Made by a program: the position numbers and the translations under genes | Source: Komagataeibacter medellinensis NBRC 3288 | GTDB lineage: Bacteria; Pseudomonadota; Alphaproteobacteria; Acetobacterales; Acetobacteraceae | Direction: 5' to 3' | Length of the DNA stretch: 64,000 nucleotides | Assembly: GCF_000182745.2 (NCBI RefSeq) | Contig: NC_016027.1 | Span: forward strand, 1,789,501-1,853,500 | Notes under the pieces: model-generated | Seen by the model: the letters and a program-made list of their open reading frames with translations, nothing else | Told to the model about the DNA's origin: nothing | Databases searched by the model: none | Part shown: positions 61,965 to 64,000 of the stretch, one piece after another | How the letters are laid out: each line of letters starts with the position of its first letter | Numbering within the stretch: the stretch's first letter is position 1

Positions 61965-62211
61965 GTCGGGCAGGTCGGGCAGGTCGGGCAGGTACTCTAG
62001 AAGCCCCTGAAAACCGCCATTTTTATCTATCTCTTTTCTGCCCGACATAAGGTTGCCCAGTCGGGCAGGTCGGGCACACATCCCGTCCCTTTCCATCTTC
62101 TGCCCGACATGCCCGACTGCCCGAATGTATGTCGGGCAGCTTTTTGGAAACCAGAATGGTGGAAAACTGCGGGGTATAGCGTGCCTGCCCGACATGCCCG
62201 ACATGCCCGAC
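61965..62211. repeat. Symmetric array of 12 GTCGGGCA octamers
   Basis: Forward copies start at 61965, 61974, 61983, 62060, 62069 and 62131; complementary TGCCCGAC copies start at 62039, 62101, 62110, 62186, 62195 and 62204. Neighbouring copies in a cluster are 9 bases apart. The order is FFF R FF | RR F RRR, and each forward copy has a reverse partner at the mirrored distance from about 62088, within one base. Sequence between the octamers is only weakly mirrored. Located just past the DUF927 stop codon. Likely a binding array for an island protein (replication, partition or transfer). Confidence 0.9.
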
Positions 62212-62236: not shown

Positions 62237-64000
62237 TCAGGCTTCGTCATCGCCAAGGATCGCTCCCCGGATGACATAGACACGGGGACGGCCTTCGCCG
62301 GGGATGGACACCTTGCGGGTCAGGTCACGCCCCTCCTCCGTCACAAGATACCCCGCATCCCTCACAGCCTTGGCGGCACGCACGGCATCCAGTCCCTGAC
62401 AGACTTCCGTTTTCCACATCTCCCGCAGGATCAGGTATTCCCAGCGGACCTGCCCGCCTGTTTCGACCTTGCGCTTGAACCCCACGCGGTTGATGGTCCG
62501 GCTGGCAGCCAGAACGCCTTCGGCTTCGCTCATGGGGGTAATGAGAGCAATGTTGGTAAAGCGGCTCTCCCCGTGCTTCTCGATAAAGCCCCGGACCTGA
62601 TCGACCGCCTTCATGTCCTCACTGGCTCCAGCACTCCCTCGCTCGGCAAACCACGCCGCAAAGCACGCCCCGGCAGCATGGAACGCTTCGCCCCGCTTCC
62701 ACGGCAGCACCCCGTAACTGGTCGCCAGTTCCCCTGCTCCAGCGATCAGGGCAAAACGGGCGGCCACGCTCCGCACCTGGCCATCAGCCTTGGGTGGCAC
62801 GAAGCGGGCCTCAAACTGTCGGCGGATAGCCTTGAGGCGTTTTTCCAGCCCTTCGGCATCATGTGCCCGGTCATGCACCAGACGGGACAGGAAAGCCCGT
62901 GAGGCCGTGCCGTAGCAGGTGCGTGCGGCGTCACGTAAGTGGTCGGCCAGTGCCCCGCCTGATTCCATATCGTGCAGATTCTCGAATGCACCCATGCCTG
63001 CCCCTGCATCAGCGGGGATATTGACCAGACGCACCTCCTGCCCTGCCATGATCCGCTTGCCAGCCTCGCCCATCTTGGCGGCCAGGGTGACTTCGCCGGT
63101 GGACAGGAACAGAACACGCCATGTCTTGCGAGCGCGGGCATTGCCGGTGCGTCCGGCCCGCATCTTGCCGCTGTTGTTCGCCAGCATATAGGTGATCTCG
63201 CCCACCTCCCGGCTGTCGGCCTGCCCCATTTCATCAAGGATCAGCACGGTATCCGAAGTCTCGGACGCAACCCCTTCCAGCCCGTTCGCGGTGCCGCGCC
63301 ATGCCCGTATCTGGCCTTCCCGGTCACCGCGTCCCCATACGCTACCCGCGATATAGGCGGCAGTGGACTTGCCGGACTGGGCCTTGCCGACCAGATGGAT
63401 GCCGCCGGACTGCTCGCCTACAATGTCCAGCAGCGGCCCGGCAAAGGCTGCGGACAGGAACAGGGCAAGACGACTGTTGCCCACGGCACAGGCCGCAACC
63501 TTGTGCTGCCACTCCGCCAGCGTGCCCGCCACGGCGAATTCCTGCCCTGTTGTGGCCCGTGATGACTGAAACACGACCGACCGTGCCCCGGTGCCGATGG
63601 GCAGGCCGCCCGGCAGGATGAAGGTATGACCATCTGGCGCGGTATGCCACCCGGCACGGTCCACGCACCGCAGCCGAGCCTTGGTGCGGGCGCTGGCGAT
63701 GAACTGGCGCAGGTATCGAGTGGCGGAAATGGAGCAGTTCAGCCCAGCATCCTCCAGTTCGCCTGAAATGTCCTTGCCGTCGCCGTGCACCATGCGCTTG
63801 GGAATGGCCCATTCATGCTTGCGGTTGTCACGGTCCTGCCAACGGATCATCAGTCCCCAGCCGAAGCCGGTACCGTCATTGGTCTCGGCCACCACATCAA
63901 ACGGGGCTGCGATCCAGATGGGCGGTGCGGGTATATCGCCGTTGCTGTCAGGCATGAAATGCAGCCCAGCCGGGTTCATGAAATAGCCAGGCGGCATCTG
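62237..64000 (-). CDS. DUF927-family ATPase (partial, runs off the window)
   Basis: At least 587 residues; the frame is still open at the right edge, so the N-terminus is missing. The DUF927 core is seen in FILPGGLPIGTG, the P-loop VGKAQSGKSTAAYIAGSVWG, Walker B-like VLILDEMGQADSREVGEITYMLANNSGK and arginine-containing GNARARKTWRVLFLSTGEVTL. The C-terminal 180 residues are helical with a possible winged-helix end. Such proteins are common on plasmids, phages and integrative elements next to primases and are thought to be helicase-like ATPases in replication. Together with the octamer array it may be part of an origin system. Confidence 0.88.
   Translation of the reverse strand, partial: QMPPGYFMNPAGLHFMPDSNGDIPAPPIWIAAPFDVVAETNDGTGFGWGLMIRWQDRDNRKHEWAIPKRMVHGDGKDISGELEDAGLNCSISATRYLRQFIASARTKARLRCVDRAGWHTAPDGHTFILPGGLPIGTGARSVVFQSSRATTGQEFAVAGTLAEWQHKVAACAVGNSRLALFLSAAFAGPLLDIVGEQSGGIHLVGKAQSGKSTAAYIAGSVWGRGDREGQIRAWRGTANGLEGVASETSDTVLILDEMGQADSREVGEITYMLANNSGKMRAGRTGNARARKTWRVLFLSTGEVTLAAKMGEAGKRIMAGQEVRLVNIPADAGAGMGAFENLHDMESGGALADHLRDAARTCYGTASRAFLSRLVHDRAHDAEGLEKRLKAIRRQFEARFVPPKADGQVRSVAARFALIAGAGELATSYGVLPWKRGEAFHAAGACFAAWFAERGSAGASEDMKAVDQVRGFIEKHGESRFTNIALITPMSEAEGVLAASRTINRVGFKRKVETGGQVRWEYLILREMWKTEVCQGLDAVRAAKAVRDAGYLVTEEGRDLTRKVSIPGEGRPRVYVIRGAILGDDEA

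What the first reader, a model, noticed from the sequence alone, without database searches (positions are those of the whole stretch)
61965..62211. Twelve identical octamers arranged with dyad symmetry over 247 bp
The octamer GTCGGGCA occurs six times forward and six times as its complement. The pattern FFF R FF | RR F RRR mirrors itself around position 62088 within one base, although the DNA between octamers is only weakly mirrored. Selection appears to keep octamer identity, spacing (9 bases in clusters) and symmetry while the rest drifts. It follows directly after a DUF927 ATPase in an island. An iteron-type origin, a partition centromere, a transfer origin or a large structured RNA are all possible; I know of no described site with this layout.
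Basis: seen in the sequence. Interest (0 to 1): 0.78.

Follow-up and report, generated by a model that had tools for sequence, protein, structure and literature searches.

The report
Island replication origin with swappable octamers
The repeated octamers look like the replication start site of a mobile DNA island: related islands often keep the same layout but use another octamer, and a few amino acids near the end of the island's copying enzyme appear to tell which one.

Summary
Twelve exact GTCGGGCA lie in 247 bp as FFF R FF | RR F RRR, mirrored around 62088, 25 bp 3' of a TOPRIM-DUF927 helicase gene in a 13.4-kb tRNA-Arg island.

In 115 DUF927 loci, a scan told only the geometry found a six-octamer module (RR-F-RRR) scoring above all shuffled controls in 66. 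Of 60 arrays left after removing exact duplicates, 55 start within 600 bp 3' of the gene. Octamers differ between elements; the layout stays. The window has two mirrored modules; many relatives have one. The pair-to-triple distance falls in classes about 11 bp apart. P4 ori1/crr and PICI/SaPI origins are close parallels, so this is most likely the island's iteron origin.

New: octamer sequence tracks residues 836-838 near the helicase C-terminus. In 49 elements, N837 goes with C at base 3 in 16 of 16; G is usual otherwise. In one genome two closely related elements differ mostly across about 420 bp holding these codons plus the array, with similarity on both sides: a likely specificity cassette. 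49 of 115 loci missed the threshold, and the residue rule has exceptions. Binding and replication were not tested.

The parts
61965..62211 (.). Octamer array, proposed replication origin: two mirrored six-octamer modules (FFF R FF | RR F RRR), dyad near 62088
61965..61990 (+). Outer triple, three GTCGGGCA (61965, 61974, 61983)
61991..62038 (.). Long spacer of one module, 48 bp; holds ATGGCGGTTTTC, a form of a spacer element seen in relatives with other octamers
62039..62046 (-). Single reversed octamer
62060..62076 (+). Inner pair of octamers (62060, 62069)
62077..62100 (.). Centre between the two modules, holding the dyad
62101..62117 (-). Inner pair of octamers (62101, 62110); a one-mismatch extra copy follows at 62118-62125
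62131..62138 (+). Single octamer opposite to its neighbours
62139..62185 (.). Long spacer of the other module, 47 bp
62186..62211 (-). Outer triple (62186, 62195, 62204)
62237..64000 (-). TOPRIM-DUF927 helicase gene, proposed initiator (865 aa; runs beyond the window to L003:4834)
62321..62329 (-). Codons of residues 836-838 (RDL), the proposed octamer-reading residues
   Evidence: coordinates counted back from the stop codon
60307..60323 (.). One att copy: 17-bp direct repeat at the 3' end of tRNA-Arg; the other at L003:13676-13692 past the integrase

Best explanation
The array is the replication origin of a tRNA-Arg-integrated mobile island of PICI/P4-like build. The island's DUF927 helicase binds the octamers with a C-terminal domain in which residues 836-838 read bases near the octamer's middle. 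Six octamers in fixed, helically phased positions make one loading site; the window carries two, back to back. The helicase melts the AT-rich long spacer and starts replication of the excised island. The gene's tail and the array form a cassette that can be exchanged whole, giving an element a new specificity in one step. Shown here: layout conservation, octamer swapping, residue-octamer covariation, one mosaic block bounded by similarity on both sides. Inferred: binding, melting, double loading, replication, and the reason for swapping.
For: Position: of 60 arrays scoring 43 or more (6 exact duplicates dropped from 66; near relatives remain), 55 start 0-600 bp and 58 start 0-1500 bp 3' of the DUF927 stop, in a scan from -3000 to +1500. 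Shuffles reached at most 41 (115) and 42 (290). Layout kept with swapped octamers. Distances of 53-57, 66-69 and 76-78: resultant 0.85 at 11 bp against 0.04 in shuffles; class changes at least 10 times on the tree. Covariation: C-terminal motif in 18 of 19 GTCGG elements and 0 of 39 others (motif chosen after seeing part of the data, with EEGRD added for the window and L012; 16 of 19 without it). Tree made without the last 75 residues: 9 independent pairs on supported branches, 8 same way, 0 opposite, 1 without difference, p 0.0078. Residues 837, 836, 838 rank 1, 2, 3 of 570 columns (55 elements) and 1, 2, 4 of 570 (49 elements). L026 and L028 in one genome: identity falls to 33-62% from -120 to +300 and is 83-100% after. 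Profile match to 5dgk 'Active helicase' and 8tch 'Pathogenicity island protein'. Circular plasmids pMNOD05 (scan score 42) and pSR-7 (48) and phage phiAH14b (46) have an array 3' of DUF927. [quoted passage not shown]
Against: No binding or replication data. 49 of 115 loci score under 43; some hold arrays of other layout (L025, 42), others show none nearby; 2 of 60 arrays lie upstream (L018, L021). Plasmid pTAO100 has DUF927 and its own RepM; its scan gives 43 at +641, but no 8-mer occurs more than twice in the 500 bp 3' of the gene. In one search only residue 837 (0.44) beats all 500 permutations (largest 0.38), and these do not keep relatedness; residues 690 (0.28) and 788 (0.25) also rank high and follow base 1 (0.60, 0.61). 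G at base 3 is also the default: 6 of 6 elements with neither N, D, K nor R at 837 have it. Exceptions: L036 (KDP, D837 with G), L119 (RNL without GTCGG), L120 (KGL with GTCGG), L156 (N837 without GTC). The GTGT rule is weaker: motif in 14 of 20 against 0 of 38, pairs median p 0.125. No structure could be predicted.
Confidence: 0.88

Rival explanations
1. A cis site bound by the same helicase for another purpose (P4 crr-like control or incompatibility region), with the true origin elsewhere in the island.
For: In P4, crr lies 3' of alpha and ori1 4.7 kb away.
Against: No second tandem octamer cluster in the genome and one further single exact copy in the 14 kb of L003 searched; an origin with other sites was not excluded. 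PICI origins lie 3' of rep (PMC6092414, passages). Single-module relatives resemble P4 ori1 in copy number and reversal.
Confidence: 0.08
2. A large structured RNA or cruciform made by the inverted octamers.
For: The window strand folds into one long hairpin, z -9.6; five two-module arrays give -6.7 to -14.9.
Against: Nine single-module arrays give -1.5 to -5.8 (shorter sequences, 40 mononucleotide shuffles each): weaker, not absent. L144 and L051 have their octamers all or nearly all in one direction. No Rfam match reached its gathering score. Octamer choice tracks protein residues; distances step by about a helical turn.
Confidence: 0.02
3. A partition centromere or transfer origin.
For: Repeat arrays are common in both (general knowledge).
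Against: No Par or relaxase family among the nine island proteins scanned against Pfam (initiator, seven neighbours, integrase; not every island ORF was scanned). The array keeps company with, and covaries with, the helicase gene.
Confidence: 0.02

Closest known systems
Phage P4 ori1 and crr, bound by the alpha primase-helicase
   Same: Octamers in both directions; ori1 has six with one reversed, gaps 22 and 43; crr lies directly 3' of the initiator gene (record). The scan's best hit in the whole P4 genome is ori1. Binding by alpha is recalled.
   Different: P4 alpha matches Zn ribbon, D5_N, DUF5906 and Pox_D5, the window's protein DUF927. In P4 ori1 the triple lies on the short-gap side, crr units are direct repeats, and ori1 and crr are separate.
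SaPI and Gram-negative PICI rep-ori modules
   Same: Origin immediately 3' of rep, two iteron sets around an AT-rich stretch, C-terminal domain recognises the origin; Cch with DUF927 is related to SaPIbov1 Rep (PMC6092414 and PMC7581432, passages).
   Different: The passages seen give no six-octamer rule with one reversed copy, no helical-step distances, no residue-base correspondence and no cassette exchange. The SaPI original was not held.
SCCmec Cch and Cch2 helicases
   Same: Cch carries DUF927; the C-terminal domain of Cch2 binds direct repeats 3' of its gene (PMC7581432, passages).
   Different: Cch2 has three iterons and belongs to another helicase family.
Iteron plasmid origins with a RepA/Pi-type initiator (recalled)
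   Same: Short repeats bound by the replicon's own initiator.
   Different: The initiator there is not a helicase (recalled).

Membership tests
PICI/SaPI-type rep-ori | Iteron array immediately 3' of the initiator gene | tested here: met
PICI/SaPI-type rep-ori | Two iteron sets around an AT-rich stretch | tested here: met
   Long spacer mean AT 0.50, gene 0.32, 58 elements
PICI/SaPI-type rep-ori | Initiator helicase of the SaPI Rep / Cch kind | tested here: met
   Pfam DUF927 E 6e-75; profile match to 8tch and 5dgk
PICI/SaPI-type rep-ori | Element with its own integrase at an att site | tested here: met
   17-bp repeat at tRNA-Arg and past the integrase
PICI/SaPI-type rep-ori | Induction and packaging by a helper phage | not tested
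   No search for packaging genes or cos sites was made
PICI/SaPI-type rep-ori | Supports autonomous replication | not testable with these tools
   Bench test; indirect support from circular plasmids with DUF927 plus array
P4 alpha/ori1/crr | Six octamers, five one way and one reversed, phased gaps | tested here: met
   the side of the triple differs
P4 alpha/ori1/crr | Alpha-type initiator (Zn ribbon, D5_N, Pox_D5) | tested here: not met
P4 alpha/ori1/crr | Separate ori and crr sharing one octamer | tested here: not met
   One tandem cluster in the genome
Structured RNA | Strong fold kept across relatives | tested here: inconclusive
   Strong in two-module arrays, weaker in single-module ones; no Rfam match at gathering score

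The most novel reading that the evidence does not exclude
DUF927 elements use a readable protein-DNA code: residue 837 sets base 3 of the aligned nine-mer counted from 0 (N gives C; K or R gives G), residue 838 sets base 4 (L gives G; S, A, G or T gives T), residue 835 goes with base 5. Because these codons lie about 110 bp from the origin, gene tail and origin travel as one cassette, so elements sharing a cell can change origin identity in one recombination event and avoid cross-replication, while the six-octamer, phased geometry stays fixed.
Probability: 0.5. Interest if true: 0.77.

Novelty: new variant of a known kind. Interest (0 to 1): 0.62.

Why it matters
It assigns a likely origin and a likely origin-reading segment to a family still named 'domain of unknown function', and offers a rule that predicts part of the origin sequence from protein sequence. 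It makes a general question testable: how satellites and plasmids change replication specificity without losing function, here by changing protein tail and site together as one short block. The phased six-octamer module with one reversed copy also constrains models of helicase loading.

Tried and rejected
Structured RNA: the window folds strongly, single-module arrays less so; Rfam gave 5 hits, none at its gathering score. A second octamer cluster in the genome: none. Viral contigs: no stretch matched the protein patterns. The template puts the long gap next to the triple; P4 ori1, built the other way, scores 41, under the threshold, although it is P4's best hit (run with a looser seed of 18 instead of 20), so modules of other build are undercounted. 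L016's distance of 68 in the scan disagrees with its layout (77).

Held-out loci (34 from other classes of the phylum, 6 of the same family): 14 of 40 score 43 or more (shuffles not rerun for these). Only 1 of 40 proteins carried the KN motif (L144); its array is GTCGG as predicted, but the scan missed it and I read it by eye; 18 elements (14 of these 40 with score 43 or more, L144 by hand, and L167, L169, L170; L167 let in at score 42): mean octamer similarity 6.19 for the nearest C-terminal segment, 5.72 for the nearest core, 5.34 for all; segment against all p 0.003, core against all p 0.13. A modest effect.

Other pairs: L037 with L038 and with L039 also dip over the array and recover partly; L078 with L069 and L028 with L030 drop without recovery; L082 with L104 shows no sharp block. 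Control pairs with like octamers (L013/L087, L031/L034, L026/L027, L062/L064) or untyped (L093/L094) show at most mild dips (lowest 62%). Co-resident typed elements: 6 pairs in 4 genomes (G277, G372, G059, G300), none with the same consensus, L104 and L122 differing by little; equal octamers are uncommon anyway, so this is no test.

Full report
CHECK. The window holds 20 GTCGGGCA against 4.04 expected; twelve lie at 61965-62211. The layout FFF R FF | RR F RRR and the dyad at 62088-62088.5 follow from those coordinates. The stretch matches its own reverse complement at 66%. Two octamers with one base between occur nowhere else in the genome.

SURROUNDINGS. The array lies 25 bp beyond the stop codon of an 865-aa protein with TOPRIM-like and DUF927 parts. 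A 17-bp direct repeat sits at the 3' end of tRNA-Arg and again past a tyrosine integrase, giving an island of about 13.4 kb. The nearest named relative is L012, Komagataeibacter europaeus, 97% identical over the 587-residue part in the window. A profile of that part and ten relatives matches two solved chains, 'Active helicase' (5dgk, E 4e-19) and 'Pathogenicity island protein' (8tch, E 8e-17).

RELATIVES. Searches showed arrays 3' of the gene with other octamers, in several cases with the window's full layout (L013 GTGTTCCA, L028 GTCGGAAC, L030 GTGTAACC). A scan told only the geometry scored 43 or more (of 48) in 66 of 115 loci; shuffles reached at most 41 (115) and 42 (290). After dropping 6 exact duplicates, 55 of 60 start within 600 bp and 58 of 60 within 1500 bp 3' of the stop, in a scan from -3000 to +1500. 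The other 49 loci fall below threshold.

MODULE. The unit is two octamers, one reversed, then three. Of 58 arrays, 24 hold ten or more copies within 400 bp of the module, one mismatch allowed, stray copies included; the window and others carry two units as a dyad, while L040, L044, L119 and L120 have other two-part forms. The distance from pair to triple is 53-57 in 24 of 60, 66-69 in 4 (L016's is doubtful) and 76-78 in 32. On the tree (58 elements, quick method) the class changes at least 10 times, and the values cluster at a period near 11 bp. P4 ori1, at 65, fits the middle class. The long spacer is the most AT-rich part measured (0.50; gene 0.32), and GAAAAC occurs in 20 of 58 long spacers against at most 8 in mononucleotide shuffles.

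PROTEIN-DNA COVARIATION. In the first C-terminal alignment (29 rows) GTCGG octamers went with a G-[DE]-G-K-N segment. On 58 elements the motif is in 18 of 19 GTCGG elements (16 without the variant added for the window and L012) and in 0 of 39 others. On a tree built without the last 75 residues, 9 independent pairs differing in octamer class lie on supported branches; the motif follows in 8, opposes in 0, does not differ in 1, p 0.0078. A second rule, GTGT with K followed by a small residue, holds in 14 of 20 against 0 of 38, but its pairs give median p 0.125. Without choosing a motif, the correlation of octamer distance with residue difference, corrected for core distance, ranks residues 837, 836, 838 first to third of 570 columns (55 elements); on 49 less redundant elements they rank first, second and fourth, and residue 837 (0.44) exceeds all of 500 permutations (largest 0.38), which do not keep relatedness. 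By base: base 3 follows 837 (0.47) and 836 (0.39), base 4 follows 838 (0.39) and 797 (0.37), base 5 follows 835 (0.40), base 1 follows 788 and 690 (0.61, 0.60). In those 49, N837 goes with C at base 3 in 16 of 16 and D837 in 1 of 2; K or R goes with G in 23 of 25, the other two (L073, L117) unsure in register; the remaining 6 of 6 also have G, so G may be the default. S, A, G or T at 838 after K837 goes with T at base 4 in 10 of 10; L838 after K or R837 with G in 7 of 8.

CASSETTE. L026 and L028 are two elements of one genome (G277). Before the last 120 bp of the gene their 60-bp bins are 78-98% identical, with one dip to 55% at -300; from -120 to +300 they are 33-62%, and from +300 to +900 83-100%. 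L027 against L028 shows the same block. L031 against L032 drops at the gene end; the far side cannot be judged, since L032's stretch ends. Other pairs are listed under tried and rejected. One well-bounded example, supported by partial ones, is what this rests on.

REPLICONS. Circular plasmids pMNOD05 (20 kb) and pSR-7 (35 kb) list DUF927 and no other annotated replication initiator, in a gene table that the tool calls incomplete, and both have an array 3' of it; so has phage phiAH14b. pTAO100 has RepM as well and no clear array beside DUF927.

KNOWN PARALLELS. P4 (record X51522): crr directly 3' of alpha with octamers both ways; ori1 with six, one reversed, gaps 22 and 43. PICI and SaPI origins lie 3' of rep with two iteron sets around an AT-rich stretch, and the C-terminal domain of SaPI Rep recognises them (PMC6092414, PMC7581432; passages only). 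A P4-satellite survey has no mention of crr or iterons (PMC8628076, term search). The listings of searches showed me no paper on a residue code, helical-step module or cassette exchange in this family; I saw titles and starts of abstracts, and most subscription papers are not held.

VERDICT. Most likely an iteron origin of the PICI/P4 kind in a DUF927 family of islands, plasmids and phage-like elements. New here are the regularity of the module, the residue-octamer covariation and the swap of gene tail and origin as one block.

Noticed in passing
L018 and L021: The best-scoring module lies upstream of the DUF927 stop (-2890 and -1960), unlike the other 58 of 60.
   Followed up: no
Long spacers, e.g. 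window 61991-62038; L029, L031, L089, L092: A shared element near GGCNGAAAACNGCCA persists while octamers change; what reads it is unknown.
   Followed up: partly
L026 (contig 6172 bp) and L028 (contig 4691 bp), genome G277: Closely related elements on very small contigs, possibly circular or repeated DNA.
   Followed up: no
L040, L044, L119, L120: Two-part arrays in other relative orientations, some with the triples facing inward.
   Followed up: no
L003:5918: A single further GTCGGGCA inside the island, about 3.7 kb beyond the array.
   Followed up: no
L170 (phage phiAH14b): A 16.8-kb phage record with integrase, AlpA, topoisomerase-primase and a DUF927-like helicase gene and a GGGGAACA array; its gene order resembles a satellite.
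   Followed up: partly
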